A stretch of 64,000 nt of DNA from a virus. A program made the position numbers and the translations under genes. Numbering within the stretch: position 1 is the first letter of the stretch; every line of letters starts with the position of its first letter. Shown piece after piece: positions 1,837 to 51,600 of this stretch. The notes under the pieces were generated by a model. It did no database searches. It had not been told where the DNA came from and saw only the letters and a program-made list of their open reading frames with translations. The stretch is taken from positions 124,001 to 188,000 of IMG/VR virus record IMGVR_UViG_3300022872_000001; one strand, written 5' to 3'.

Positions 1837-3341
1837 TAAAAACTCCTTCGGGTACGTACTCTATAAAATCCTGTAGTTGCGCTTGCATTAGCAGTTGAAA
1901 TACCTGGAGCGGTACTTCCTGAAATAACAGATACCTGGTTTCGTGTAGCTGTTCCTCCTGAATACCCATAACCTGTAAAACTATTTGAAGTAGCTACTCT
2001 CTCATTAGTTCCATTGATATCATCTGCAAAACTTATATCTACCGCGTATTGAGATGTTCCAATATTATGGGTTTTGCTATAGGTTATATTACCAGCAGCA
2101 ACTGCAAATAAGCCTGAATCGTATCTTCCATTCAAAGCATAATTCACGACCGAGGAAACTGAGGAGGTTCCTGTTACTGCCTCACCTACATACACTCTAT
2201 TCTTGGGAGTGAATACAGGATTTACACCTACACCTACCGAAGGTCCAGACACCTGATACATCTGCATGTTTGGTATCGAGAAGAAATCCGAAGCGTAACC
2301 AGACGTACCTGCCTTCGATAAGGCCGTTTGCGGTGTGAACGTCACTCCGTTCGGATGTTTGCAGTAAGGAAGGAATTCGAATCCCTGAATCGATCCTGCC
2401 CAGAATTGACCAAAGGCAGTGGTAGCCCCTATAGCAAGTGTCGTAATCGGGCAAAGAATACTCGCGCTGGTAATGGTCAAATTACTTTCGGCAACACCGT
2501 TAACATAGACAAAATATTTACCTGCTACGGCATCGTATGTTACCTCAAGATCATAAGCCGTACCATTAACAAATGTGGTATTACCTGCCACCCCATTAGC
2601 TATATCAAATGAAGTTCCTGTACTGGATAAAGCAAAAGAAATTTTACTAGAAACGAAGTTCACTACCAGACCGTAGTTTGCGGCATTGGCAAAATAAAAC
2701 AGACTGGAGGTTGTCGCAATGGAGGTCGGAATAAACTTGCAACGAACTGTCCAACTAGCCTTACCTAAACTGGTTATAGCTGTTGACTTCATATACGAAC
2801 TGGTACCGTTGAAGACACCCATATACGTTCCAGCTATAGCTGGTGAGGTATTGCTAAAGGTTACTGCATTGTTGGTCCAGGTATTACCAAAGTCATCCAA
2901 GTTGGTATTATTTAAATCCAGTTTAGCTTGAGCGGCTTGGTTGAAAGAATAACCATACTGAGGTTGAGCAAGAGTAGAATTCCACGCCACAGACGCCGAA
3001 CTCACCCAGTCCTGAGATACGAAGGATAGATTCGAGGCCGGTAGCGTCACCACACCTGCGGTATCGGCTGTCAGTGTAGCTATGAAGTCTTGGACACCTG
3101 CAGCAAATGTGGTGCGCATATTAACAGAAGTAGCCGCCAAATTCACAGCTAATCCTGTTCCTGCACTTAACATGCCTGAGTAGCCAGCAGAAGTTATGGC
3201 TCCATATTGGACTGTATTTCTGGTATTGGTTAGACTATACCCACTTGTAATTCCATTGGCGTCGAATACTAAGGAATCGACACCTCCGACTTGTAACGAG
3301 CCACTTAAGCCTGTGGCATTAGAAACTAGTGCTACAGTCAT
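1836..3341 (-). CDS. Tail fibre-like protein with LamG/concanavalin-like domain, paralogue 3
   Basis: 501 residues, aligning end to end with the 286-1836 product: the same N-terminal module, a middle domain with LGKASWTVRCKFIP and YDAVAGKYFVYVNG, and the same C-terminal module ending RTRRSF. It is first in transcription order of the tandem trio. It starts 9 bases after the repeat fibre gene (3351-5006). Divergence is concentrated in the middle domain, as expected if the trio presents different receptor-binding surfaces. The lectin role comes from the family pattern; no ligand can be read from the sequence. Confidence 0.72.
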   Translation of the reverse strand: MTVALVSNATGLSGSLQVGGVDSLVFDANGITSGYSLTNTRNTVQYGAITSAGYSGMLSAGTGLAVNLAATSVNMRTTFAAGVQDFIATLTADTAGVVTLPASNLSFVSQDWVSSASVAWNSTLAQPQYGYSFNQAAQAKLDLNNTNLDDFGNTWTNNAVTFSNTSPAIAGTYMGVFNGTSSYMKSTAITSLGKASWTVRCKFIPTSIATTSSLFYFANAANYGLVVNFVSSKISFALSSTGTSFDIANGVAGNTTFVNGTAYDLEVTYDAVAGKYFVYVNGVAESNLTITSASILCPITTLAIGATTAFGQFWAGSIQGFEFLPYCKHPNGVTFTPQTALSKAGTSGYASDFFSIPNMQMYQVSGPSVGVGVNPVFTPKNRVYVGEAVTGTSSVSSVVNYALNGRYDSGLFAVAAGNITYSKTHNIGTSQYAVDISFADDINGTNERVATSNSFTGYGYSGGTATRNQVSVISGSTAPGISTANASATTGFYRVRTRRSF

Positions 3342-3350
3342 AATTTTTCC

Positions 3351-5006
3351 TTAGACGATTACCCAACGCGAACCTGTAGGTATAGTAACGGTTATTCCAT
3401 TTGCTACCGCAATAGGTCCAGCCGATACCGCGTTTTTATTAGTTGTTATGGCGTAGCTTATGCTCACGGTTTCTGCATTCTCGTAGAACACGTCACTGCC
3501 TGTCCCACCACTGGCTCCACCTGTACCTGAAGGAGTTACCCATGCAAGAGATGTACCATTCCAAGTCAACGCTGTACCAGCAGTAGTTGGTGCGGTAACA
3601 AAACCGGTAACACCCGTTCCTGTTTGGTAGTTCACCTGATTAGCTGCACCACCTGCGACCGCAGTAGCTAATGCCGCAGTTCCTCCAATACTCAAACTAG
3701 CGGCTGTGCCGGTCGCATTGGTTAATACAACGGCAGACGGCGTACCTAGATTAGGTGTGGTCAAACTTGGTGATGTATTAAGAACAACAGAACCTGTACC
3801 TGTTGACGTAGTTGTTCCTGTACCACCATTGGCTACAGCTAGAGTGCCCCCAAGGGTTATGGTACCTGATCCAGTAATAGGACCGCCTGTGGTAGTTAAA
3901 CCTGTAGTACCTCCGGACACTGCAACCGAGGTAACGCTACCTGTACCTTCCGCAACCCATGCAAATGCTGAACCACTCCAAGACAACAACGTATTTGCTG
4001 TACCCGGTGCAGGAACAAAACCTGTTACACCTGCACCCGTTTGGTAATTGATTTGATTTGCGGTTCCACCAGCCACGGATGTAGCTAAAGCGGCTGTTCC
4101 TCCAATACTCAAGCTACCTGCGGTACCTGTTAAACCTGTACCTGCCCCTGTGAAACTTCCACCAGTTATCAAACCAGAAGCAGCAGCAGTGGTAAGTGAA
4201 ACTAAGGAAGTAATGTCTGAGTTAGCACCGGATGCTGCCGCACCCAGGCTAGTACGCGCACCTGCCGAAGTTGTTGCATTCGTACCCCCATTAGCCAATG
4301 GTAAAACGCCAGTCACACCTGTGGTGAGCGGTAAACCTGTGGCATTGGTAAGTGTAGCTGCGGAAGGAACACCTAGATTCGGAGTGGTTAAAGATGGGGA
4401 GGTACTGAGCACCACAGAACCTGTACCTGTAGATGTCGTAGTACCTGTACCACCATTAGCAACTGCCAGCGTACCGCTAAGCGTAATAGTTCCTGCACCT
4501 GTGATAGGTCCACCTGATGTGGTCAAACCTGTGGTACCCCCAGATACAGCAACGGAAGTTACGGTACCTGAACCTGAAGGAGATGTCCAAACAAAGGCTG
4601 TACCATTCCATGTAAGTATTGTATTGGAAGAACTTGGTGCAGCTATGAAACCTGTAGTACCTGAACCTGTTTGGTAATTTATCTCGTTGGCAGCACCTCC
4701 AGCAATAGCTGCTGCTGTGCCTCCTACATTCAAGCTACCTGCAGTACCTGTCAAGCCCGTTCCGGCACCCGTAAAACTGCCAGCAGTAATAGTGCCAGAC
4801 GCAGTTGCGGATACCAAAGAAGCCAATGATGTGATGTCGGTATTGGCACCAGGTTTGGCACCTATCTGTTTAACCGATCCACTATGATCTTTGGAAAACA
4901 GAATTTGATCAGCTAAGTTGACTGCCAATTGACCTTCTGCCAGCTGACCTGCTGTAGGCACAGTCCCCGAGGTATTTGATCTTAAGTTCTGTATGATGTT
5001 AGCCAT
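3351..5006 (-). CDS. Repetitive tail fibre protein (Gly/Thr/Ser-rich repeats)
   Basis: 551 residues. The first 50 residues resemble the N-terminal attachment segment common in phage fibres (AEGQLAVNLADQILFSK). The rest is built of long near-identical units containing VTSVAVSGGTTGLTT, GPITG.GTITL.GTLAVANGG, TGTTTSTGTGSVVL and INYQTG.G.TGF. These repeats suit an extended trimeric beta-rich shaft. The last 60 residues are non-repetitive. An AGGA ribosome site lies 6 bases before the ATG. It sits between the lectin-like paralogues and a small tail protein, so it probably belongs to the same fibre assembly. Confidence 0.75.
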   Translation of the reverse strand: MANIIQNLRSNTSGTVPTAGQLAEGQLAVNLADQILFSKDHSGSVKQIGAKPGANTDITSLASLVSATASGTITAGSFTGAGTGLTGTAGSLNVGGTAAAIAGGAANEINYQTGSGTTGFIAAPSSSNTILTWNGTAFVWTSPSGSGTVTSVAVSGGTTGLTTSGGPITGAGTITLSGTLAVANGGTGTTTSTGTGSVVLSTSPSLTTPNLGVPSAATLTNATGLPLTTGVTGVLPLANGGTNATTSAGARTSLGAAASGANSDITSLVSLTTAAASGLITGGSFTGAGTGLTGTAGSLSIGGTAALATSVAGGTANQINYQTGAGVTGFVPAPGTANTLLSWSGSAFAWVAEGTGSVTSVAVSGGTTGLTTTGGPITGSGTITLGGTLAVANGGTGTTTSTGTGSVVLNTSPSLTTPNLGTPSAVVLTNATGTAASLSIGGTAALATAVAGGAANQVNYQTGTGVTGFVTAPTTAGTALTWNGTSLAWVTPSGTGGASGGTGSDVFYENAETVSISYAITTNKNAVSAGPIAVANGITVTIPTGSRWVIV

Positions 5007-13337: not shown

Positions 13338-13545
13338 GGTAAAAGAAATCTCCGTCACAGTATCGAAGACCTTTCAATTCAAACAGTTTGAACCATCCCA
13401 TGTATCAATCACCGAGACCTTAACCCTGGCTCCAGAGGACGATAAGGATGAGGTGAAGAAGAAAAGTTATAAACGTTGTAGCGACACGGTAAACGAATTG
13501 CTTCTCAAAGAAGGTAAGCGTTACCAAGAAAAGAAAGGTAAATGA
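13330..13545 (+). CDS. Small charged hypothetical protein
   Basis: 71 residues. A short beta segment (EISVTVSKTFQFKQF) is followed by a highly charged, Lys-rich helix. GGAGG lies 7 bases before the ATG, inside the previous gene. Its TGA overlaps the clamp loader ATG (ATGA), so it is translationally coupled to it. Function unknown. Confidence 0.6.
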   Translation: MAKVKEISVTVSKTFQFKQFEPSHVSITETLTLAPEDDKDEVKKKSYKRCSDTVNELLLKEGKRYQEKKGK

Positions 13546-14192
13546 TGGTTGAAGAAAATGCATTGCACAGGAAGTACAGGCCTCAGGTATTAGAAAAGTT
13601 AATCGGTCATGAGGCAGCGGTAACACGTATGCAAGGTATGGTGGAGTCTGGTAAGATTCCAAACGCATTACTGATTACAGGCCCGTCTGGAGTAGGCAAG
13701 ACAACGTTCGCCCGAGCCATTCACCATGCAATCAATGGTTTGAAGAATCACCAAGATTATCTGGAAGTCAACGCGGGTTCGGAACGTACTATTGATGACG
13801 TACGGAGCTGGATTCAAACATCCAAGTTTCGTCCGCAAGGTAAGCGCAGAATCTTGTTAATCGATGAAGCGCAGGGGTTACTTAGTAATGCCCAAGCTAC
13901 AGATTGTTTTTCTGGCGACACTGCTGTCCTAACAGATAAAGGAGATCTCACAATGAAAGAGATTCATGAGATTACCGATAAAGGCGAGACAATTAAAGTT
14001 GCGTCTTTTAATCACAAAACTCAAAAAACGGAATTCAAAGCTGTGGTTGCTTCCCGTAAAAAGGAAAATGCCAAACCTATGGTGAATATAGGTTTGGCAA
14101 GATGTACAGAAGACCATCCTGTGTGGGATTCGGGAATAGCATGTTATGTAGATGCTAAAGATGTAACCTCTATGTTGACTATCAAAGATTAA
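13542..14192 (+). CDS. Clamp loader ATPase, N-terminal part fused to split intein N-fragment
   Basis: 216 residues. Residues 1-121 are the N-terminal AAA+ half of a DnaX/RFC-type clamp loader: HRKYRPQ at the start, Walker A GPSGVGKT (47-54), Walker B LLIDEA (D108, E109). At C122 the sequence becomes an intein N-fragment (CFSGDTAVL) and stops at 14192 without the rest of the ATPase. The C-terminal half is encoded at 14642-15529. Protein trans-splicing should join NAQATD to CLLKPLEEPS, restoring the conserved clamp-loader motif. The ligated product would be 372 residues and would load the beta-type clamp encoded at 20818. Confidence 0.88.
   Translation: MMVEENALHRKYRPQVLEKLIGHEAAVTRMQGMVESGKIPNALLITGPSGVGKTTFARAIHHAINGLKNHQDYLEVNAGSERTIDDVRSWIQTSKFRPQGKRRILLIDEAQGLLSNAQATDCFSGDTAVLTDKGDLTMKEIHEITDKGETIKVASFNHKTQKTEFKAVVASRKKENAKPMVNIGLARCTEDHPVWDSGIACYVDAKDVTSMLTIKD
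13905..14189 (+). mobile_element. Split intein, N-terminal fragment (95 residues)
   Basis: It begins with the catalytic Cys1 in CFSGDTAVL (block A) and contains the block B histidine in RCTEDHPVW. It ends at the gene's stop with no endonuclease domain and no C-terminal splicing block. Its partner is at 14642-14773. The insertion point lies in the most conserved part of the clamp loader, typical for inteins. Confidence 0.88.
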
Positions 14193-14604
14193 AATCTTTT
14201 TCACCTGCTAGGAAGCCAGAGTGTAGTCTTCCTAGCCTTTTATAGTCATTTTCCCAGACGTAGATTACATTATATCCTAATTGATTTAAGGTTAATAATC
14301 GGTGCATTGTCTTTTTATACGCCTCTTTTTTAATTGGATAATTTTTAGGATTACCGTGAAAGTAGTCTCCTAAAAATTCAAATACTGTTCTTGTTTCTTT
14401 GTGGTATCCATCTAACCTTATTTTCTTTCCGTTTAATTCAAGGGTCTTTTCTTTGGATCCGTGTCTTCCTTTGATACACACGCCATAGTATTCTTGTAAT
14501 TCATTTATCCAAGCAAAACCTATAGAAGACCTGTCCTGCTTTACCTGTAGTCCTCGTCCAGTCGCATACTTGTAAATATAGTTGTTAGTAGATTTTAATT
14601 TCAT
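14182..14604 (-). CDS. Vsr-like homing endonuclease, antisense inside the split clamp loader gene
   Basis: 140 residues on the opposite strand, filling the gap between the two split-intein genes; its 3' end overlaps the IntN gene by 11 bases. The motif IRLDGYHKETRTVFEF followed by LGDYFHGNP has the Asp, Glu and His pattern of the Vsr-like nuclease fold. This family is known from fractured-gene split-intein loci in phage metagenomes. An AAAAGGA ribosome site precedes the ATG. It probably cuts intein-free alleles of the clamp loader gene and so spreads the whole cassette. The residue pattern is seen; activity is inferred. Confidence 0.75.
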   Translation of the reverse strand: MKLKSTNNYIYKYATGRGLQVKQDRSSIGFAWINELQEYYGVCIKGRHGSKEKTLELNGKKIRLDGYHKETRTVFEFLGDYFHGNPKNYPIKKEAYKKTMHRLLTLNQLGYNVIYVWENDYKRLGRLHSGFLAGEKDFNL

Positions 14605-14641
14605 CTTAAATCCTTTTAATTAAGCGTTAGCTACGTAACTC

Positions 14642-14773
14642 ATGAAAACTTATCCGCATAAAATTAAGGTAGAAAAAACTACCCCTGAAGAGGTCGTTTA
14701 TGACCTACAGATTGAAGACAATGAGAATTTCTTTGTAAAGGTGGAAGATGGTAGATACGGATTGGTGCATAAT
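14642..14773 (+). mobile_element. Split intein, C-terminal fragment (44 residues)
   Basis: Contains block F (VVYDLQIEDNENFFV) and block G (GLVHN) with the terminal Asn that cyclises during splicing, followed by a nucleophilic Cys. Length and break position fit the classical split-intein site, where the endonuclease domain normally sits. Confidence 0.88.
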
Positions 14774-15529
14774 TGTTTGCTGAAGCCTTTGGAAGAACCT
14801 AGTCCGTCTACTTTATGGATTCTGTGTTCCATGGATCCGGCTAAGTTCAAAGTTGGTAAAGGTATTGCAATCGCAAAACGTTGTACTCAGATTGTTCTTG
14901 AACCTCACACGTCGGCTGATCTGTTGAAACAAGCACGGCGTATCGCCAAAGGTGAAGGAATGAATTACGTCCTGGATGAAGAGAATAAATTACTCAAATC
15001 CGTGAGCCGTAATTGTGAAGGTGACATGCGTACCTTGGCAAACATAATGCAGGCAATGCAACAGTATTACGATGGCATCAAAGGGAAGAAACCAAAGATG
15101 CTATCCAAGGAACACATTGGTGAGGTCATTAATTCCACTACCTCCTCAGATGAGGAACACGCCGTTAAGATTCTTACGGCTATCTACGCAGGTTCCTTTG
15201 CAGAGGCACAGAAGGCAATTCTGAATATTCAGGATCCCTTCCAAGCTATCCAAAAGATGATGTGGACTAATGGTTACGTTATGAACGATAAGGTTCTTAA
15301 TGGAGCCAGACATCCTAAGGTATGGGGTAGCGCTGCAGGTAAGATGTTGAAAGATAACCTAGCAGCCATCAAACCAGAAGTTCAATTAGGCGCTCTAGCT
15401 ATTACCAATGAAGCCTTGGTTGATCTTAAGGCAGCAGTTATGGCAACCGCAGTAGATATTCCTTTGTTGATATCTGCCCGTGTTTTCCGTTTGATTAAAA
15501 CAATTCAACTGACGTACCCAAAGAAGTAA
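14642..15529 (+). CDS. Split intein C-fragment fused to clamp loader C-terminal part
   Basis: 295 residues. Residues 1-44 are the intein C-fragment ending in His-Asn (GRYGLVHN). Cys45 is the first extein residue and starts CLLKPLEEPSPSTLWILCS, the sensor-1 region of clamp loaders. The remainder is the lid and collar (for example NCEGDMRTLANIMQAMQQYY). No good ribosome site is seen before the ATG, which is odd for an essential protein and may set low stoichiometry. It depends on the product of 13542-14192 for function. Confidence 0.87.
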   Translation: MKTYPHKIKVEKTTPEEVVYDLQIEDNENFFVKVEDGRYGLVHNCLLKPLEEPSPSTLWILCSMDPAKFKVGKGIAIAKRCTQIVLEPHTSADLLKQARRIAKGEGMNYVLDEENKLLKSVSRNCEGDMRTLANIMQAMQQYYDGIKGKKPKMLSKEHIGEVINSTTSSDEEHAVKILTAIYAGSFAEAQKAILNIQDPFQAIQKMMWTNGYVMNDKVLNGARHPKVWGSAAGKMLKDNLAAIKPEVQLGALAITNEALVDLKAAVMATAVDIPLLISARVFRLIKTIQLTYPKK

Positions 15530-16178: not shown

Positions 16179-16541
16179 ATGACAGCCAGTATCGAAGGTC
16201 TTTACGTAGGTTCTACCACTTTCAAGATTTTCGGAGAGATTCCGCCTGATAGGTTTGAGCAGGTAAGAGAGTTAGCTTCCTTGATAGGTGCGGAGTGTGG
16301 TAAATTCCTAAAACTAGACCCTCGGACGCGTTCCCATGTAGCCAAGGAAGCCAGTGATTATCTCAAAAGGATTCACTGGCTTCCTTTGCTTGTAACGTGT
16401 GACGAGGTTAATAATCTGGTTAGCTACAAGGTGGAGAGGCGCATTGCTCCGCGTACCTTGAACATTGATATCATGTTCGAATACAATTGCCATTTGTCAA
16501 TATCCTATTCTCAAAGAGCAGATATTCACAAAAGCAATTGA
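16179..16541 (+). CDS. Hypothetical protein
   Basis: 120 residues from the ATG at 16179; a TTG twelve bases earlier is less likely because it lacks a ribosome site. Contains FKIFGEIPPDRFEQVRELAS and a helical middle, with no known motif. GGAG lies 12 bases upstream, a long spacing, and the two bases between the previous stop and this start suggest coupling. No Mre11/gp47-like gene is found here, and this protein is too small to be one. Confidence 0.5.
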   Translation: MTASIEGLYVGSTTFKIFGEIPPDRFEQVRELASLIGAECGKFLKLDPRTRSHVAKEASDYLKRIHWLPLLVTCDEVNNLVSYKVERRIAPRTLNIDIMFEYNCHLSISYSQRADIHKSN

Positions 16542-16563
16542 TGGATTTAAACACGGAAATAAG

Positions 16564-18852
16564 ATGAATATCTTTAAGTCCCTTCGGTTGAAAAATACCG
16601 GACCTTTCAAACAGCAAACATTTAATTTCAAACCTGGTTTATCGGTTATTTACGGATTGAATAAGTCCAACGCCCGCCAGTCAACTAATGCAAACGGTGC
16701 TGGTAAGAGTTTTTTCTTTAGCCAAATATCGGAAATTCTCCATGACTCTCCTGTTGTTGGTGAGAAGGCTGACAGAATTAAAAAGGGCGAACGTACTCTA
16801 ACCTTCGACATCAAGGGCAAGGAAGTAGCGGTAACCCGCAAGAACACGAAACTCCTGGTTAGTGTGGATGGCAAGCCTAAAAAGTTTCGTACTCAAGCAA
16901 TCTGCAAATCCTGGGTTAAGAAGTACGTACCTTTGACGGCAGAGGACTTCAATACCTATGTCCATATTGATGCCCGTATTCCTCATCCGTTGGTTATGGG
17001 TACTACGACCGATCGTCGGCGTTTCTTCTCTTCTTTCTTCTCTTTGGATAAGCTTGATATAGAGCGTAAACTATTCCAAGCTGAATTGTCCAAGCTATCT
17101 AAGGTACGCGCGGCCTACCGTGAATTAAAGAATGAATATAAAATCACGATTGAGGATGGTGTAGGTAAGGACGAATATCAGGCAATGAAGGAAAAAGAGG
17201 AATTACTCACCACCAAGCTGCGTAAGTTATCCAAACAGAATGATAAGTTGCAGGAGATTGCATCTATCATTACCTTCTACGAAGCAGCGGAAGATTCCAT
17301 TAAGCGCTTAATGGATATGGTGGGAGACGAACTTACCGTAGACTCCTTCGAGAAGAAATTTGAAGATGTAAAATGGGACTACGCTAAGGATACGAAGGAC
17401 TTGGAAGAGGCATTGGAATATGAGGAGTACCTTAGGGATAATAGAACTTATCTTAAGAAGTATGAATCCCTCTCTAAGGGAACGCGTAAGCTACTGGTTG
17501 AATTAGGCTATCGAAAATCTCTAAAGAAGGTAGAGAAATCCGTAGAGCGGCTAGATGAGATTAATTCAGCCTTGCATCTATTAAAAGATACCTTAAAGAA
17601 AACCAAAGCAAACAAACCTGATAAGGTTGAAGACCTTGGATATGATCGGCGTGAGATATTAGCTAAGTTAGATTCTCTAGCTCACCAGAAAGAACATATA
17701 GAGAAATTCAAGGAAGGTGTATGTGACACATGTGGGCAATCTGTAAAGGTAAGAGATCCAAAAGAGATCCAAAAAAGGATAGCAAAACTTAAGGATCGCC
17801 TAGAGAAAGCCCAAGCGTACACGGATTACAAAAATGATCTTATCGAGTATAAGCAGGCTAAAAAGGTTATCGATAATTGCAAAAGTGAGATCGAAAAGCT
17901 GGAAGAGGAAGCTGAACCTCTGCGCAAATATGAATCCATGTACAAGGAACTACGTGGTATGCCGGAGAAGCCTGCTAAGTTCGAAGGTAAGAAATTAGAG
18001 GTTAAGGTTAAGCAGCGCATGGTAGACGAAGACAAGGATCGCCTGCACCTTCTCAAGTTCCTTAAGCCAAACATCGAGTTGATTATCGATTACTTTGCTC
18101 TAACTAAGGAGCAGATTCAGTCAGCTAAGGATGCATCTGTCCTGCAAAGGAAGATTGAATCCATCAATGAAAAACTTTCGAGTCTCCGAGGTAAATTAGA
18201 GGTACAGAAAGCGATTCGTCAAAGAGCCAAACGGTTGAAGGCACGTTTGGTTGAGATGAAGGAGCAGCTAAAGGACGAAGTACCTTGGAAACTTCTGGTA
18301 GATGCATATAGCGAGAAGGGCGTTAAGAAATTAGCCATTCAGGCAGTCAGCCATCGATTAATGGAGATTGTGAATCGGTATGCTAAGTTGGTGTTCCCAG
18401 AGGACTATACGTTCTCCGTGGAATGGACAGCATCCCAACTGAATTTGTTGGTACACCGTAAGTATGGTAAAAGGATAGAGGTATCAGACGTGCGTAAGCT
18501 GTCTGGAGCGGAATCCAAAATCTTCACGTTGATTATGATTCTGGCTTTGCTAACGTTCGTACCGGAACGCAAACGTTCATCTTTGATGATCTGTGATGAG
18601 CCGACGGCTAATTTTTCTCCAGAGACAACCAAGGCATTTTCGGAGCTACTTCCAATTCTGAATAAGCTAATACCAACCATAATTATCATTACACCACGCA
18701 CAGGTGAACGTTACGAGAACGCTACCAACTTTACCGTCGTTAAAGAAAACGGTTATTCCAAATTAGAAAAAGGACACCCCAGTGAAATCACACGTAATAC
18801 AGGCGTACGGAGTTCCCGGAGAAAGCCCGCAGAATCTCTCATGGGCGCTTGA
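16564..18852 (+). CDS. Rad50/SbcC/gp46-like recombination ATPase
   Basis: 762 residues from the ATG at 16564 (GGAAATAAG upstream). Walker A is NANGAGKS (42-49). Long coiled-coil arms follow, with a zinc hook CDTCG (C387, C390) at the turn. The C-terminal half has the ABC signature LSGAESK and Walker B LMICDEP (D678, E679). It resects DNA ends with a nuclease partner during recombination-dependent replication. The usual Mre11-type partner (gp47) is not in the window. Its 3' end overlaps the next gene by 71 bases. Confidence 0.88.
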   Translation: MNIFKSLRLKNTGPFKQQTFNFKPGLSVIYGLNKSNARQSTNANGAGKSFFFSQISEILHDSPVVGEKADRIKKGERTLTFDIKGKEVAVTRKNTKLLVSVDGKPKKFRTQAICKSWVKKYVPLTAEDFNTYVHIDARIPHPLVMGTTTDRRRFFSSFFSLDKLDIERKLFQAELSKLSKVRAAYRELKNEYKITIEDGVGKDEYQAMKEKEELLTTKLRKLSKQNDKLQEIASIITFYEAAEDSIKRLMDMVGDELTVDSFEKKFEDVKWDYAKDTKDLEEALEYEEYLRDNRTYLKKYESLSKGTRKLLVELGYRKSLKKVEKSVERLDEINSALHLLKDTLKKTKANKPDKVEDLGYDRREILAKLDSLAHQKEHIEKFKEGVCDTCGQSVKVRDPKEIQKRIAKLKDRLEKAQAYTDYKNDLIEYKQAKKVIDNCKSEIEKLEEEAEPLRKYESMYKELRGMPEKPAKFEGKKLEVKVKQRMVDEDKDRLHLLKFLKPNIELIIDYFALTKEQIQSAKDASVLQRKIESINEKLSSLRGKLEVQKAIRQRAKRLKARLVEMKEQLKDEVPWKLLVDAYSEKGVKKLAIQAVSHRLMEIVNRYAKLVFPEDYTFSVEWTASQLNLLVHRKYGKRIEVSDVRKLSGAESKIFTLIMILALLTFVPERKRSSLMICDEPTANFSPETTKAFSELLPILNKLIPTIIIITPRTGERYENATNFTVVKENGYSKLEKGHPSEITRNTGVRSSRRKPAESLMGA

Positions 18853-34213: not shown

Positions 34214-35040
34214 CTAAACTGAGTCCACCCAATCCGTATATTTGAACGTAATTGCCAGAGAAACGATGTTGGTACTCCCTCCGTCCATTGCGACCTCACC
34301 CATAGTCTGCGGATATAGACCAGACAGATTCACCGTACGGACTACCTCAGGTATATCATCATATACGACGATCTGGCCAGATACCTTGTATGCGGAAGAC
34401 AAGGTACCTGAATTATTACGCCATGACCGAATAGCTTCCATCCAGGCACCAAACTTCGCACGGGTACCCCAGTCATTTGTTTCCAGGAAACCCATTTGTA
34501 TGGAATGGGTATAAATCTTACGACCTGGGAACGGAACAGTTACACCATGCAAGGCTACGTCCAAATCCTCGAAGGCAGTACCTGGTAATTCAAGAGTCTG
34601 ACATTTGAAGGTCAGATCACGTGTATCACTAGAACCTGGAATAGCTGGCAGAAAAAGATCAAAATTCCCACTTATGTTCCGCATTAGTCGTTACACCAAT
34701 GCGCGCCTTTAGGCAGCTCTAGCTTTCACTAGAAGGTCAGACTATATCTTCACCCTGAGTAGCAGGGGCTTCCTATTTCCCGCCACTTGGCGGTACGGCT
34801 TGCGCCTAGTCGTTGAACCTTCCGCTGTTCGCGGCTTGGCTGCTGATTGCCCAATCCTAAAGTTTTTCAAACCTTCGCGCTCACCTATATTTCAAGGTCA
34901 CGCTGTGGTACTTATAGGCTCTAAGGGGTTTCCAGCAATTAAGGAAAATTTTACTGCATCATTACTAATGCAGGTCGCAGAATTTACGACTGTGCAGGAT
35001 CAGGTAAACTCTGAATATCAAAAATGCTAGATCGAGCCAT
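34214..35040 (-). CDS. Tail tube protein (T4 gp19-like), interrupted by a group I intron
   Basis: Exon 1 is 35040-34986 and exon 2 is 34668-34214. Spliced product is 169 residues, close to T4 gp19 (163). The junction reads DPAQSWNFDLFLPAIPG. Tube family features: LTFKCQTLELPGTAFED early, and LSGLYPQTMGEVAMDG near the end. Tube subunits stack inside the sheath and form the DNA channel. Exon 1 has its own AAAGGAG site. Without splicing, translation stops after 18 codons. The exon 2 frame also has an ATG at 34684, but that lies inside the intron. Confidence 0.85.
34669..34985 (-). mobile_element. Group I intron (317 bases, no open reading frame) in the tail tube gene
   Basis: The minus strand shows CAACGACTAGG and GAAGATATAGTCT, the paired P7 strands (GACTA at 34811-34807, TAGTC at 34744-34740). 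P1 pairs exon end CAGUCGU with internal guide GCGACCUG (34978-34971), with a U-G wobble exactly at the 5' splice site. P10 pairs loop AAAUUCU with the 3' exon start GGAAUUU. The intron ends in G (34669). Hairpins CTAGTGAAAGCTAG and GCATT...AATGC fit P9. No endonuclease is encoded inside, but one lies directly upstream. Confidence 0.9.
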
Positions 35041-35052
35041 ACTAGAACTCCT

Positions 35053-36282
35053 TTAATTAGTTAATATATTCTGAATAAAATTGTTCACACAGCCTCTAAT
35101 GCTACTGGGTTTTTCCAGATACCAATTAGAAGCTAGGAAGAGAAACGCATCTTGTTTCTTCCTTTTGATGTGAATAATCCAACGTACTTTGTTACCACTG
35201 TCGCAGGCAATTTGGGCCTTCCTTCTATTGGTTTTTAGATCGCCTTCACCACGCCCTCCTATGTCAGTTTTACCCCGTCCCATAAATGTCCAAGGGCTTT
35301 TGCATTCAATAAACGTATCTAAGGAATGTATATAGAAATCCGGAAATGTACGCATTTCGGAAAATGCGTAGTCTGGGAAATCTTCACTAAATTCCGTAGA
35401 TATATCTTTAGCCCCATATTTTGCTACCAGCCTTTTCAAGACTTCCATAGCAGACAAACCTTGAACTTTATACTTACGACCTTCTAGTGTAATCTCGTAT
35501 ATGTGCCGAGATTTACTCATTGCCTTGAGGAAGAATTTCGGAATCTGCATGGCGTAAGCTTCTCCATACACACGTTTCAAGGTCTCTTGGCCTTTAGCGC
35601 GTATGCTTGAATTACTTAGTAAATAATCAGTACCGTATTTCTTTCTATTTGTAGAGCGCACTTTAGACAAAATCTTTTCTTGCCAGTTATCTCCATATTT
35701 CCGTTGCAAGGTTACCCGTCGCTTTTCTATCGATGCAGGACGTTGCATACCATTAGTAATTCCTTCGCTAGCCATTAATTTGGCAGCACGTTTACCGCAG
35801 ATGTCCCGCTTAGGATCTTTCCACGCGATCTTATTTTTCTCGCTAATATGCGCTCTTTTGAGATCTGATACTTTCTTTGCATGGCTTATACCGCAATTAG
35901 AGCAGGTGCAAACTTTAGAATAAGCAAATTGCTCTTTACATATAACGCAAAATCTACTTTCGATGGCGGCTGAAACGTGGCGACTAAACCCACCAAGCAT
36001 ACGCGGGTTACTACCAAAGAAAACAAATTTTCTGTAAAGGATTTTATTATTATAAAGCTCGCGAAAGAATACTTCACTCAAACTTTTCATGTTGACATGC
36101 GAGGCAGACAGCTTACAGAAAAGTTTCTTTATATAAAGCGCGTCCGATTTATTCCATTCATTACGATTAAATCTACCGACTACTTTAGGTATAATTTCTA
36201 CTTTTTCAATTAACGATTTACCCACGCAAGCAGAGTGTAGCGTTATCCTACGACTTTTATTAATCCATTTATCTAACTTCAT
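35053..36282 (-). CDS. PD-(D/E)XK homing endonuclease inserted between two copies of tube exon 1
   Basis: 409 residues from the ATG at 36282 (GGAGATAAA upstream). Zinc-finger-like CVICKEQF...CTCSNC, then helical repeats (TLQRKYGDNWQEK, NRKKYGTDYLLSN, LKRVYGEAYAMQ), a KYKVQGLSAMEVLKRLVAKY module, and the nuclease motif TFPDFYIHSLDTFIECKS (D, E, K). The repeats probably read DNA sequence. Its closest relatives in the window are the genes at 32888 and 37148. It interrupts the tube gene after codon 20 of the upstream exon copy and probably targets the intron-free or element-free allele. Confidence 0.75.
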   Translation of the reverse strand: MKLDKWINKSRRITLHSACVGKSLIEKVEIIPKVVGRFNRNEWNKSDALYIKKLFCKLSASHVNMKSLSEVFFRELYNNKILYRKFVFFGSNPRMLGGFSRHVSAAIESRFCVICKEQFAYSKVCTCSNCGISHAKKVSDLKRAHISEKNKIAWKDPKRDICGKRAAKLMASEGITNGMQRPASIEKRRVTLQRKYGDNWQEKILSKVRSTNRKKYGTDYLLSNSSIRAKGQETLKRVYGEAYAMQIPKFFLKAMSKSRHIYEITLEGRKYKVQGLSAMEVLKRLVAKYGAKDISTEFSEDFPDYAFSEMRTFPDFYIHSLDTFIECKSPWTFMGRGKTDIGGRGEGDLKTNRRKAQIACDSGNKVRWIIHIKRKKQDAFLFLASNWYLEKPSSIRGCVNNFIQNILTN

Positions 36283-36386
36283 TTTATCTCCACACAGATT
36301 GGATGAGTTCGCGCTACTAGAAGCGGTGTGGCGCTTCGGGCTGGCCGGCCTTTTCATAGCTCGAACTCAAAAAAAGGTTTACAGGA

Positions 36387-36449
36387 TCAGTTCCAATTCT
36401 GGGCCGGATCAGCTAGGCTCTGGATATCATAAATACTGGATCTTGCCAT
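36387..36449 (-). pseudogene. Orphan duplicate of tail tube exon 1 (20 codons)
   Basis: AAGGAG, ATG and 20 codons reading MARSSIYDIQSLADPAQNWN, then TGA. It matches tube exon 1 (MARSSIFDIQSLPDPAQS-WN) with three amino-acid changes but many synonymous base changes. It continues two codons past the intron site of the other copy before the sequence diverges into endonuclease flanking DNA. Likely the original 5' end of the tube gene, severed by insertion. Palindromes GGCCGGCC and GAAGCG...CGCTTC follow it. Confidence 0.8.
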
Positions 36450-36483
36450 TTAAAACTCCTTAATAAATAAATCAGTCATTAGG

Positions 36484-37147: not shown

Positions 37148-39484
37148 TTAGCACATAGATAATTCCCACTTTAACTTACCGGCATCATAGATACGATGTA
37201 AATTAAGCAATTTACAGTTTTCCCACTCGGATAAGGTAGGATCAAATGCGGCAAATGTCTTCGCTAGGTTCTCACGAGTGGTAGATTGCATCGGTCTAAC
37301 ATCTAAAGAACCAAACCAAACTTTATAACCTGGCTTACTTTCTGACACATTAACGAATCCTAATGTTTCATACATATCGCCATTAAACATCTGATTATCT
37401 GAATAGCTTATTATCTTTCTAGGATTCATATCCCGAATAAATGCCTTTAGAAGCTTAGATGCCCCGCCTGGGACTCTTGTTGAGGTAACGTAACGAGTTA
37501 ATTCGTAAACATCCTTAACCTTTTTAGATCCTCTATTTGACCTTGTAGTATCGAAGATCATGCAAGCAACTACTTCGCCTTCGTAGACAAGGCAATAGGC
37601 TTTACCTGTTCTAGGGGAGCCTTGTATATGGTTATTATCAACTAGAGCCTTGACGTCAGATACATTCTTAATCTCTATGGAACACTTACGCGCAAATACA
37701 GACGCTTTACTCATTCCCAACGTATTACCTATTAGCTGGCGAATTACTCTTTTACCTCTATGCGTTCTCCATATGTAGTCCCATACAGTAATCAAACGCC
37801 ACCCTTTACTCTTAGCCTTCTTAACTCTGTCCTTAATCAGTGATGCTGCCGTAGCCTTATCCCTAGTTGCAGTTGAATCAAAATAAAGTGTTCTTAGATC
37901 TATAGCTACCCTATACTTAGAGTAATAAACGCAGTGATTTTTTACATAAAAGGAAGGATCAATACTTGAAAGATAACCAGTAACAGAATCCTCAAAATTC
38001 TTGCGTAGGGTTTCCCCAAACTGCAAATAGTGATTGAAGGTAATATGGGAAGGAAGATTATTACTCAACCACCATTTACCTTTTAACTGGACCCAATTCT
38101 TTTCAATCCTAACAAACCAAATACACTTTCCTCTATTTGCTTTGGCTTTCTCTAGAGAGGATTTGAGGTTGTTAGGTCCTAGTAACGTCCAAAGAGATTT
38201 GCATTCTATAAATGTGTCTAGGGATTTAATGTAAAAGTCAGGTATACCGTTAATACCTAGTCTGCGCCTAGCTTTCTTGGCAACTAAATCGAAACTAGAA
38301 TACACATTCTTTAGGCCAAATTTTTCTACCAGTTTATATAACAGCTCTTCCTCGTAGCTACCTTGGACTTGGATAGTCCTACCATCAATAACAATCTGTC
38401 TAAATGATAAAGACTTCTTTAATCCTTTTAAAGCTTGCTCTGGGTTTTTATTAGGCTGCTCGTAACCGTATATTTTTAGCCAGGTAGCTTTGCACTTATC
38501 CATAATTTCTGGATTCTGGGTAGGTGTAGGAAAACCGTACAGCCTAATGCAAGTAGCCTCAATTTGTTTACGCAAAGAAGGTGAACCCTTCGCTACACCC
38601 CCATACCTTTTAAAAGAGGTTACAGCTACCTTGGCTTTAATTGCCTTTGATTGCATGGGGTGTTCTACACCATATCTCTCAAGGCTTGTATTAATTCTAC
38701 GCTGGATACTATTCGGGTTTTTACTATTATGTGTAAAGCCCGTACGGTCGAAATATGTTTTACAGCTCTTAGCAGTGCGTAGCTTAATATCCTCAGCAGA
38801 TTTACTACGCCAAGCATCGCTTTTCTTCTTCTGGATACTAAGTTTTTCTTCTAAAGATTTATTCCTCCAAGTTTTACTAGCCTTATTACTAACTGCGGCA
38901 CATTGCATAGGATTTTCAGCACCGTATCTTGCAAGATTAGTTTTCTTTTTCTTTTGACGTGTCTTTTCTTTTTGTTCTTCCGTCCGAGATTTAAACTTAA
39001 CTGCTCCCTTGGAAGATATATCAGGATTCTGCGCAGCTCGTTCTACTCCATACCTAGCAAGATTTGTTGCTACTAGAGATTTATCCCTAATCTCGTACCT
39101 AATCCTATGTGCTTTATTAGGAGTTCGCAAGTCACATAGAGAGCATACGGTCTTGTGCGTAAACTGCTCTTTGCAGCACGGACATATTTTCTTGTTCAGT
39201 AAAGAAAGTAGTGTTAATTTGTTATCTACGTCTTTAGCATTTCCTGATGTAAGATACGAAACCTTTTTCCATAATTTCCTATGGTTGGTATACAATTCAC
39301 CTAGTAATTGAGATGCCCAGAATCTACCTTTAGGGTTAGTAAGATTTTTATGCAGGGTTTTAACCTGCTTTCTATCGTCAGAAGTAAACTCCGACAGGTT
39401 GAATTTCCCGGTGACTTTCGCAACTTTTAATAATCTGTCTTCTGAGGAATACTTACTTAATTTAGGGTGATTTAAAACTCGCAT
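37148..39484 (-). CDS. Large two-domain homing endonuclease
   Basis: 778 residues. Zinc-finger CPCCKEQF...VCSLC near residue 95, then seven or more helical repeats (YGVERAAQNPDIS, YGAENPMQ, YGVEHPMQSKAIKAK, LYGFPTPTQNPEI). The first nuclease motif is GIPDFYIKSLDTFIECKS. A second module of about 270 residues follows (YRVAIDLRTLYFDSTA, WRLITVWDYIWRTHRGK), ending in a GNAT-like or Hef-type region (TRVPGGASKLLKAFIRDMNP) and HRIYDAGKLKWEL, as in long Vsr-type phage homing proteins. Located between sheath and the next tail gene. Intact, with AGGAGACGAAT before the ATG. Confidence 0.75.
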   Translation of the reverse strand: MRVLNHPKLSKYSSEDRLLKVAKVTGKFNLSEFTSDDRKQVKTLHKNLTNPKGRFWASQLLGELYTNHRKLWKKVSYLTSGNAKDVDNKLTLLSLLNKKICPCCKEQFTHKTVCSLCDLRTPNKAHRIRYEIRDKSLVATNLARYGVERAAQNPDISSKGAVKFKSRTEEQKEKTRQKKKKTNLARYGAENPMQCAAVSNKASKTWRNKSLEEKLSIQKKKSDAWRSKSAEDIKLRTAKSCKTYFDRTGFTHNSKNPNSIQRRINTSLERYGVEHPMQSKAIKAKVAVTSFKRYGGVAKGSPSLRKQIEATCIRLYGFPTPTQNPEIMDKCKATWLKIYGYEQPNKNPEQALKGLKKSLSFRQIVIDGRTIQVQGSYEEELLYKLVEKFGLKNVYSSFDLVAKKARRRLGINGIPDFYIKSLDTFIECKSLWTLLGPNNLKSSLEKAKANRGKCIWFVRIEKNWVQLKGKWWLSNNLPSHITFNHYLQFGETLRKNFEDSVTGYLSSIDPSFYVKNHCVYYSKYRVAIDLRTLYFDSTATRDKATAASLIKDRVKKAKSKGWRLITVWDYIWRTHRGKRVIRQLIGNTLGMSKASVFARKCSIEIKNVSDVKALVDNNHIQGSPRTGKAYCLVYEGEVVACMIFDTTRSNRGSKKVKDVYELTRYVTSTRVPGGASKLLKAFIRDMNPRKIISYSDNQMFNGDMYETLGFVNVSESKPGYKVWFGSLDVRPMQSTTRENLAKTFAAFDPTLSEWENCKLLNLHRIYDAGKLKWELSMC

Positions 39485-48682: not shown

Positions 48683-51600
48683 TTACATCTCTTCGGAAAC
48701 GTCACGCAATTTTGTGCGACGCAATTTGTTGTACATCTTATTCAGATCTTTTTCATTGGATACCTGAATGCCAGCCTCCTTGATCTTATTGGCAATAGCT
48801 ATAAGCTTAGGCATGGTTAAACCAAAATACATAAGAACAGGTTCGCTCAATGCCCATTTAATTCCAGGAGCCTTCGCACGAATTGCCTTATTGGTGCCAG
48901 CTTGACCATGCGCAGGTAATACCAAGTAAGCATGACCATTTTCAAGCAACGGGTACGGCTTGATGATCTTAGGATCAGAGGAAGGTTTCTGTTCCACGCG
49001 GTAGAAGTTACGCAACTGACCTACCGAAGCAAACTTATAGATCAGATTAGGAGTTGATTTACCTTTCTGGAGCATGGTATGGACTGCACCAAAGGCTTCC
49101 TTCAATTCCTTCATCTTGGGGTCAGGCATAAAACCCTTTTCAGCCCATAGTTTCAATTGTTTTTCAAGACGCTGCGCATTGGTAATCGGTGCGTAGTAGA
49201 ACTGTTGAGCAATTGTGAAACCGAGGGATTGGAGAGCATTAGACGCTGCGGAATTCTTTTCATCAATGAAGTACGACAAACTTAGGAAACCATTGATTAC
49301 AGACAGAGCTAATTCCACGGACATTGCCTTTTCCAGATCCTTCTTCTGCTTTACCTTATCCTTCTTCAGCTTATCCAATTCCTGTTGTTTCTGGAGCCTT
49401 ACATTCTTGGCATCTTGAACCACAGCCACGGCAGGATGGTCAACTGGGGCATCTATCGGCAAATCACCTGTACCTTTAAGGATCTGGGTACGAATGTCAT
49501 TAGTCGAAGTGTCCTTACGTGTGATAAGGAAGGTAGAGGAAAATTTGACCCAAATAAAACCACTAGGTAAATCTACCTTAACAAAACGTGCCTTCATATC
49601 GAAAGCCCGAATAGTTCCTTCACCAAACTCCGTATGCACTACCTGACCAGATAGCTCCTCTTTTATACGCTTGAAGGATTCCTGTTCGGTAGCTTTTGCG
49701 TCCTCAGGTGATTGGTCTTCCTCTTCGTCACCTTCAAGAGCGTCTAACCGGAGATAATCATCCATGCGCACCAAACCTAATTGGTCTGTACCATATATTT
49801 CCAAACCAGGTGTATAAGGTACGGTATGCATTAGACGAGCATCCTTAGGAACAGGTGCAATCTCAACCGTTTCAATCTTTAGGTCACCGTGTATCTCACG
49901 ATATTCCTTATAGTCGTCATACAAACATTGGCGATATTCGGAGTAGGCATTACCGTAAATAGCTAAGGTAGAATTGCTATCCAAATCATCAGGATTACCC
50001 CAGTCATTATGTTCCTGAACTGTGTCCAGAGTCATCTTCATTACAGGGACATCTGGAATGGATTCATACGTCGTATTGTCTGCATTCTCGAACTTTGCAT
50101 TGGCAATCAACTTAGAGATCAAACGCGATATCTTGGTAATGTCAATGGTGCGATCGGCCATGACCCAGTCGAAATAAATCTTAGTACGACGAGATTCCTT
50201 CTTGAGTTCAGGACGATTGACACGGGAGTTACCTTGCTCCAATGTACCTGGATTCCAGACAGTTTCGCAATTGTGAACAAGTACGGGTGTTATAGGAACG
50301 TAACCACTTCTGCCTCCCTGATTGTGAGTAGTTACCGCAAAGTAATTATGGTTACCCTCTACCTCAAGATCATATCTATACTTACCAATGGTGTTAACGT
50401 TCCTGTTACGCTGAACGTGTATAACCTTTAGATAGTGATTGTTAATAAAGGATTCTAACCTTGCCTTACCTTTACGTACTGTATCGTTGCTTGCTTCTAA
50501 GGCAGCCTTTTTCCTATTAGCCATTACCTGCTTAGATTTATTGGACAGTATCCCGTGCGATTCATAAAGATGATTGTGTTTAGTATTGGGATGATCTATA
50601 AAATCGCATTTAGGGCATGACCAATCCCCTACACTATCATAAGGAATCACTTCAGAATTTACATCTACCTTGAACCGAGTAAAATCTCCACCGTAGGTTA
50701 TTAATTTTTGACCTTTCTTTAAATTCGCAGCCAATACTTCCTCACCACCCTTAAGAATAAAAGGATGGACTGACGTGCTTACTATGGAAGATCTTTGGCC
50801 GGTTATGCTATCCTCAACAGTGACGCTTACGTACTCATCATCAGGCTGAACAGGAGTTTTCCAACGAGTCAGAATCCTACGTTTTTCAATCCTCTTATTT
50901 TCTAAATCGTAAGATAGTACGTATTTAATATCTGGATTATCTACAATCTCCTTAATGGTAAGGGATTTATCGTAATCAATAAGAACTGGGGTTTGACCTG
51001 GGAAGCATCTAACCAACCGTGAAGCATGTTGCAAATTCAAACCAGTATTCATGGATTGCTCAACACCAATCATGATCTGCTTGGATTCATCATGTTCAAA
51101 TGCAGCGCCTGCCTCAATCTTATCAGCCGCAACATAAAGAATTGCTTTAGCTTTTAAATCATTAGGCAATAGATTATAGATCTCTTCGGCGGAGGCAGTG
51201 TAATTAGTAAATACCAAAACTTTACCAGGTATTTGCTGCTCTATATGCTCTCGAATGAGCTCATGAATCTTGTGTACCTTAGGACTTATACGATCTTCGC
51301 CCTTAAGAACTTTATCCCCTAATTCATCACTAGTAGGAGCAGTAATGAATTGTTCCAACCGAGCAAGGTAAGGACCTAAGATACCTGCCAAGTCTTCATC
51401 TGCATCCTCGTCATCTGCGCTTTCATCACCAGGATCTTCCTCCCCTTCACCCTTTGGTTCAACCTTGGATTTACCTCCATTAATGAATTCAGCCAAACGC
51501 GGAGAGGTCTTGGCCGCTTCTTTAATGGCTTCAATGGTGCGCTCAAAGAGAAGATTATAGATTTCTCGTTGTGCTTCCGTCAGGTCAACCCGATGGAATT

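What the first reader, a model, noticed from the sequence alone, without database searches (positions are those of the whole stretch)
13542..15529. Clamp loader gene fractured by a split intein with an antisense endonuclease in the gap
The AAA+ protein stops after an intein N-fragment and resumes 450 bases later behind an intein C-fragment. Joined exteins give NAQATD-CLLKPLEEP, a perfect clamp-loader motif. The gap holds only a Vsr-like endonuclease on the opposite strand. Fractured genes with split inteins and this nuclease family were described from metagenomic phage data (Dassa et al. 2009) for other genes. A clamp loader example in a phage context would extend the set and may give a new fast trans-splicing pair.
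Basis: partly seen in the sequence, partly recalled or inferred. Interest (0 to 1): 0.76.

Follow-up and report, generated by a model that had tools for sequence, protein, structure and literature searches.

The report
Phage clamp loader with split intein
A virus of bacteria carries one of its DNA-copying genes in two broken halves, each half ending in part of a self-splicing protein tag that should rejoin the protein, with a DNA-cutting-enzyme gene facing backwards in the gap; it is a new case of a known but rare arrangement, and a second phage has the same break at exactly the same place.

Summary
Window 13542-15529 encodes one clamp loader in two ORFs. The break lies inside the AAA+ core, after an intein N-fragment (95 aa) and before an intein C-fragment (44 aa) with all class 1 catalytic residues. 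The joined intein's best solved relative is the split intein NrdJ-1 (E 2.5e-10). No other clamp loader is found in the 192-kb virus record. The gap holds an antisense 140-aa EDxHD/Vsr-fold nuclease whose 3' end overlaps the N-half. New evidence: (i) another phage contig (L029) has its clamp loader broken at the identical residue, with a homologous split intein and antisense nuclease (566 aa); (ii) the two clamp loaders are not sisters (AU p = 0.0007), but their nucleases are (97/97), suggesting that the cassette moved; (iii) the window's nuclease looks like an in-frame internal-deletion form, so present-day homing is doubtful; (iv) Vibrio phage GR11A has the same antisense layout in a helicase gene, uninterrupted in its relative GR7B. 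This is the 'fractured gene' kind of Dassa et al. 2009. That paper could not be read here, so whether clamp loaders or antisense nucleases were among its loci is unknown. Splicing and cutting are inferred, not shown.

The parts
13542..13904 (+). N-extein: clamp loader residues 1-121 (Walker A GPSGVGKT, Walker B LLIDEAQ)
   Evidence: phrog_5846 E 6.9e-32; alignment with uninterrupted homologues
13905..14189 (+). intein N-fragment, 95 aa (block A CFSGDTAVL; block B CTEDHPVW); stop codon 14190-14192
   Evidence: TIGR01445 31.8 bits, cut-off 24.5; NrdJ-1 match; homologous Int-N in L029
14182..14604 (-). antisense EDxHD/Vsr-fold nuclease, 140 aa, apparently an internally shortened form
   Evidence: alignment with the 566-aa L029 homologue; model m23b640cee33c; Foldseek best match Vsr 1cw0 prob 0.99; 1cw0 Z 8.3, I-Bth0305I 3r3p Z 7.5
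14069..14099 (-). probable terminator of the nuclease transcript: 12-bp perfect stem then TTTTCCTTTT, embedded in the Int-N coding sequence
   Evidence: terminator scan, fold z -7.0; the total of terminator-like sites in the region was at chance level
14207..14236 (+). possible terminator of the N-half transcript, hairpin CTAGGAAG/CTTCCTAG then CCTTTTAT, inside the nuclease coding sequence
   Evidence: fold z -2.6; weak T-run
14642..14773 (+). intein C-fragment, 44 aa (block F VVYDLQIEDNENFFV, block G GLVHN)
   Evidence: TIGR01443 22.8 bits, cut-off 15.6; L029 homologue
14774..15529 (+). C-extein: clamp loader residues 122-372, +1 Cys, then stop
   Evidence: phrog_5846 positions 112-356, E 1.5e-29
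16465..18852 (+). SbcC-like gene downstream; the clamp loader-SbcC order is shared with BcepSauron and L029 (context, supports orthology)
   Evidence: phrog_77 E 6.6e-54

Best explanation
A phage clamp-loader ATPase gene was invaded, between Walker B and sensor 1, by a mobile cassette of split intein plus antisense EDxHD/Vsr-type nuclease gene. The N-half (extein 1-121 + Int-N) and C-half (Int-C + extein 122-372) are translated separately. The intein fragments associate, Cys1 and the +1 Cys carry out the acyl shifts, the terminal Asn cyclises, and an uninterrupted 372-aa clamp loader results; so a gene broken inside its ATPase core still works. The nuclease is, or descends from, the homing enzyme that cut uninterrupted alleles and made repair copy the cassette in. 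In this phage it has apparently lost its long middle region and may no longer home. Shown: gene layout, intein motifs, orthology, single copy in the record, a second allele at the same site, conflict between extein and nuclease trees, predicted Vsr-like fold. Inferred: splicing, cutting, mobility, how the C-half is expressed.
For: Profile halves abut exactly. Catalytic residues are complete: Cys1, TEDH in block B, His-Asn, +1 Cys. NrdJ-1 split intein is the best solved match. Uninterrupted homologues nearly all have another residue at +1 (Ala in most), while both broken alleles have the Cys that splicing needs. L029 has the same site, an antisense nuclease and the same downstream SbcC. Codon positions diverge in the order 3 > 1 > 2 in both exteins, both intein parts and the nuclease, so all have been under protein-level selection. 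Extein monophyly of the two broken alleles is rejected (p-AU 0.0007), while their nucleases pair at 97/97. No other clamp loader in the record. Nuclease model resembles Vsr and I-Bth0305I.
Against: No splicing data. The C-half start has no Shine-Dalgarno pairing (+0.2 kcal/mol; most neighbouring genes -3 to -11) and no promoter signal above chance, so its expression is unexplained. The nuclease lacks the extended DNA-binding region typical of its family. The virus record may be a fragment, so a second clamp loader outside it is not excluded. The cassette-transfer inference rests on two alleles; ancestral presence with many losses is not formally excluded.
Confidence: 0.88

Rival explanations
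1. The intein is dead: the two halves work as a non-covalent split clamp loader or are a decaying gene.
For: No splicing shown; no ribosome-binding site at the C-half.
Against: All catalytic intein residues intact in two alleles only 35% (Int-N) and 49% (Int-C) identical, third codon positions diverging most. The break is inside the ATPase core, and unspliced halves would carry intein tails there.
Confidence: 0.06
2. The gap is removed at RNA level (group I/II intron) or the break is an assembly error.
For: The phage does carry a group I intron elsewhere (34717-35030).
Against: The only Rfam hit in the window is that intron. The break coincides with intein ends, and an independent contig and a sequenced isolate show the same layout.
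Confidence: 0.02
3. The cassette is ancestral and vertically inherited in both phages, lost elsewhere, with no recent mobility.
For: The window's nuclease looks reduced; only two carriers among the relatives examined.
Against: Extein tree rejects a clade of carriers with uninterrupted relatives interspersed; several independent precise losses would be needed.
Confidence: 0.2
4. The 140-aa antisense ORF is an active minimal homing endonuclease.
For: Catalytic motif intact (D65, E76, D80, H83, D120 conserved in relatives); ORF kept in frame despite the apparent deletion, with a ribosome-binding site (-5.4 kcal/mol) and a strong terminator-like hairpin.
Against: About 415 residues between the N-terminal stretch and the catalytic domain are missing relative to L029; homing enzymes of this family rely on tethered DNA-binding regions (PMC3943268).
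Confidence: 0.3

Closest known systems
Fractured genes with split inteins and Vsr-like endonucleases (Dassa et al. 2009, NAR 37:2560; not held here, known by title, citations and memory)
   Same: Enzyme gene of DNA metabolism broken by a split intein, free-standing Vsr-related nuclease gene in the gap, phage setting
   Different: Host gene is a clamp loader; nuclease antisense and apparently shortened; whether either occurs among the original loci could not be checked
NrdJ-1 split intein (PDB 8ubs)
   Same: Best solved match to the joined intein, E 2.5e-10; class 1 residues
   Different: Different host gene and insertion site; low identity; splicing rate here unknown
EDxHD homing endonuclease I-Bth0305I (3r3p) and Vsr (1cw0)
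   Same: Predicted fold of the 140-aa protein
   Different: No extended DNA-binding region in the window's protein
Archaeal RFC inteins, sites a, b, c (PMC2814812)
   Same: Inteins in clamp-loader ATPases at conserved sites
   Different: Those sites are Lys|Thr (P-loop), Ala|Ser and Ser|Cys (sensor 1); this one lies about 18 residues before site c
MIJ3 phage split PolB intein with HNH nuclease (PMC6892783)
   Same: Split intein with a nuclease gene between the halves in a jumbo phage
   Different: Polymerase B and an HNH nuclease
Vibrio phage vB_VcorM_GR11A genes 00006/00005/00004 (recognised here)
   Same: Split intein and antisense EDxHD nuclease with convergent 3' overlap
   Different: Helicase host gene; 271-aa nuclease with a longer N-terminal region

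Membership tests
Fractured gene with split intein | One conserved enzyme coded by two adjacent ORFs that abut in the family profile | tested here: met
   phrog_5846 3-111 and 112-356
Fractured gene with split intein | Int-N at the end of the first and Int-C at the start of the second ORF, catalytic residues intact | tested here: met
   TIGR01445 and TIGR01443 above cut-off; sequence
Fractured gene with split intein | Free-standing endonuclease gene in the gap | tested here: met
   ORF 14182-14604 minus, Vsr-like model
Fractured gene with split intein | Uninterrupted alleles exist in relatives | tested here: met
   Motura, BcepSauron, L022-L028
Fractured gene with split intein | Protein trans-splicing | not testable with these tools
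   needs expression
EDxHD/Vsr nuclease domain | Vsr-type PD-(D/E)XK fold | tested here: met
   AlphaFold model pLDDT 74, Foldseek 1cw0 prob 0.99 though E 0.03; 1cw0 Z 8.3 and 3r3p Z 7.5; moderate strength
EDxHD/Vsr nuclease domain | Conserved acidic/His active-site residues | tested here: met
   Invariant D65, G79, D80, H83, N85, W117, E118, D120 and nearly invariant E76 in 11 aligned proteins
Active EDxHD homing endonuclease | Extended DNA-binding region beside the catalytic domain | tested here: not met
   140 aa, missing about 415 residues present in L029; so not filed as an active homing endonuclease
Active EDxHD homing endonuclease | Cuts the empty allele | not testable with these tools
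   needs enzyme assay
Archaeal RFC inteins (sites a-c) | Same insertion site | tested here: not met
   alignment against the sites given in PMC2814812

The most novel reading that the evidence does not exclude
Antisense EDxHD nucleases in fractured genes form their own lineage of mobile cassette. The nuclease converges on the N-half with overlapping 3' ends in all three cases seen, and here each transcript's probable terminator lies inside the other gene. The lineage has moved between genes (clamp loader, helicase) and between phages, and in the window it persists with only its catalytic domain.
Probability: 0.3. Interest if true: 0.55.

Novelty: new member of a known kind. Interest (0 to 1): 0.45.

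Why it matters
It adds a clamp-loader site, with two alleles in different phages and many empty-site relatives, to the few natural gene breaks repaired by protein trans-splicing. It gives new candidate split-intein pairs related to NrdJ-1, and a natural pair of long and short nucleases for asking what happens to a homing enzyme after it stops being needed. The recognition of the same layout in sequenced Vibrio phage GR11A, with a relative (GR7B) isolated on the same host strain that is uninterrupted at that site, makes homing of such cassettes directly testable.

Tried and rejected
Single-sequence scans for relatives of the spliced clamp loader found none; the alignment-based scan was needed. 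Scans with Int-C and Int-N alignments found no third broken clamp loader in viral contigs; one genome scan found only a terminase intein. Other nuclease relatives (L006, L008, L105-L109) appear free-standing, not in broken genes. Sequence search of the nuclease against solved structures gave only chance hits. The 566-aa L029 nuclease could not be modelled beyond its catalytic part (mean pLDDT 47), so the nature of the missing region rests on Cys motifs and on relatives such as L006 (DUF723/DUF4379). No promoter above chance in the gap. The joined intein was not folded, since joined sequences are not accepted by the structure tool. Dassa 2009, Taylor 2011 and an Ssp DnaX intein paper are not held, so the site was not compared with bacterial DnaX inteins.

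Full report
Observation. Two same-strand ORFs, 13542-14192 and 14642-15529, encode the two parts of one clamp-loader ATPase; they cover positions 3-111 and 112-356 of phrog_5846. The first ends in a 95-aa intein N-fragment and the second begins with a 44-aa intein C-fragment. Joined, the fragments pass NCBIfam's intein cut-offs and their best solved relative is the split intein NrdJ-1 (E 2.5e-10). The window lies in a 192,170-base virus record in which no other clamp loader is found.

The break. Joining the exteins gives 372 aa. The break falls between Walker B (LLIDEAQ) and sensor 1 (ILCS), so neither half can be a complete ATPase. At the +1 position both broken alleles have Cys; the uninterrupted homologues have mostly Ala (also Lys, Thr, Val, Leu; one distant homologue, L031, has Cys). 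The site differs from the three intein sites known in archaeal RFC.

The gap. The 140-aa antisense ORF is modelled with a Vsr-like fold: best Foldseek match 1cw0 at probability 0.99 although E is only 0.03, VIA-align Z 8.3 to 1cw0 and 7.5 to I-Bth0305I 3r3p. Mitochondrial ribosome and RAP-domain proteins score about as high, so fold alone does not settle function; the conserved D/E/H residues shared with other phage nucleases do the rest. Its 3' end overlaps the N-half by 11 bases. A strong hairpin with T-run on the minus strand lies inside Int-N (z -7.0), and a weaker one on the plus strand lies inside the nuclease gene (z -2.6). The number of terminator-like sites in the region as a whole is not above chance.

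A second allele. An alignment-based scan of viral contigs found L029 (IMGVR_UViG_3300018414_000006, 119 kb). Its clamp loader is broken at the same residue (NNASAQ^CLLKPLEEP), with a homologous split intein (99 + 51 aa), an antisense nuclease of 566 aa overlapping both halves' ends, and the same SbcC gene downstream. The window's nuclease aligns to both ends of the L029 protein (shared N-terminal RGLQVKQ and the whole catalytic domain) but lacks about 415 residues between them. The simplest reading is an in-frame deletion in the window's lineage; growth in L029 is possible. The missing region carries Cys pairs, like the DUF723/CapR-like repeats found beside Vsr-like domains in phage intron nucleases (PMC12350094), but it was not modelled with confidence.

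Mobility. In a tree of 21 clamp loaders the window groups with uninterrupted L022/L025 and L029 with uninterrupted L023/L024/BcepSauron. A tree holding the two broken alleles together is rejected (p-AU 0.0007). The nucleases of the two loci are sisters (97/97). This fits transfer of the cassette into the same site of different phages, as homing predicts; vertical descent with repeated loss is less likely but not excluded.

A third case of the layout. Searching annotated phages with the nuclease led to Vibrio phage GR11A, where genes 00006 and 00004 (annotated as hypothetical and helicase) are the two halves of one helicase, split at DE^CH with Int-N and Int-C, and gene 00005 between them is an antisense EDxHD nuclease (47% identical to the window's over 82 aa). 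Phage GR7B, isolated on the same host strain, has the helicase uninterrupted at that site (78% identical). The three antisense nucleases cluster with moderate support (78/89). Other broken genes found here have the nuclease on the same strand: a DNA ligase (L005) and an AAA protein (L009).

How it works. Most likely the halves are made separately and joined by protein trans-splicing. Codon-position divergence (3 > 1 > 2) in exteins, intein parts and nuclease alike shows protein-level constraint since the alleles parted. Unexplained: the C-half's start codon has no Shine-Dalgarno pairing and the gap has no clear promoter.

Novelty. The kind is known (fractured genes, Dassa et al. 2009, cited in several papers read here). 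From memory, that paper reported a limited set of DNA synthesis and repair enzymes in mainly phage metagenome data and named the Vsr-related family; it could not be read, so this is filed as a new member of a known kind, not more. The literature searches made here returned no paper reporting a split intein in a clamp-loader gene.

Noticed in passing
window 48683-54955 (-), with ORF 51940-52599 (-) inside: A 2090-aa SNF2-like helicase ORF carries two contiguous inteins. Inside the first intein, in a different reading frame of the same strand, lies a 219-aa ORF with a DUF559/Vsr-like nuclease domain (E 6.7e-9) and Cys pairs: a homing-type nuclease overlapping its intein out of frame.
   Followed up: partly
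L103 2594-5842 with ORFs 3138-4046 and 4462-4956; L110 191-2494 (code 25) with ORF 693-1493: Terminase large subunits with inteins whose HNH or endonuclease VII-type nuclease ORFs also lie in another reading frame than the intein; same pattern as in the window's SNF2 gene. Two literature searches found no description.
   Followed up: partly
window 34214-36460 (-): Group I intron (34717-35030, Rfam 74 bits) in a tail-tube gene; a second copy of the gene's 5' exon (MARSSIYDIQSLADPAQ) lies upstream with a 434-aa nuclease-like ORF (DUF7487) between the two exon copies.
   Followed up: partly
window 37148-39484 (-): 778-aa protein matching homing endonuclease family phrog_3339 (E 7e-79), close to a tail sheath gene.
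   Followed up: no
L009 1466-4070: AAA gene broken at GTGK^T with a very short Int-N (about 30 aa) and a long Int-C, EDxHD nuclease on the same strand in the gap: an atypically split intein.
   Followed up: no
L005 2225-4861: DNA ligase broken at the active-site motif KLDG^C by a split intein with a same-strand EDxHD nuclease in the gap.
   Followed up: no
L112 5263-7602 and L114 494-3367: GR11A and GR7B helicases also carry a contiguous intein at the P-loop (PRSGK^C...VHN^T).
   Followed up: no
G000:C1:86945-87358: Weak further intein match in an 870-aa ORF outside the window.
   Followed up: no
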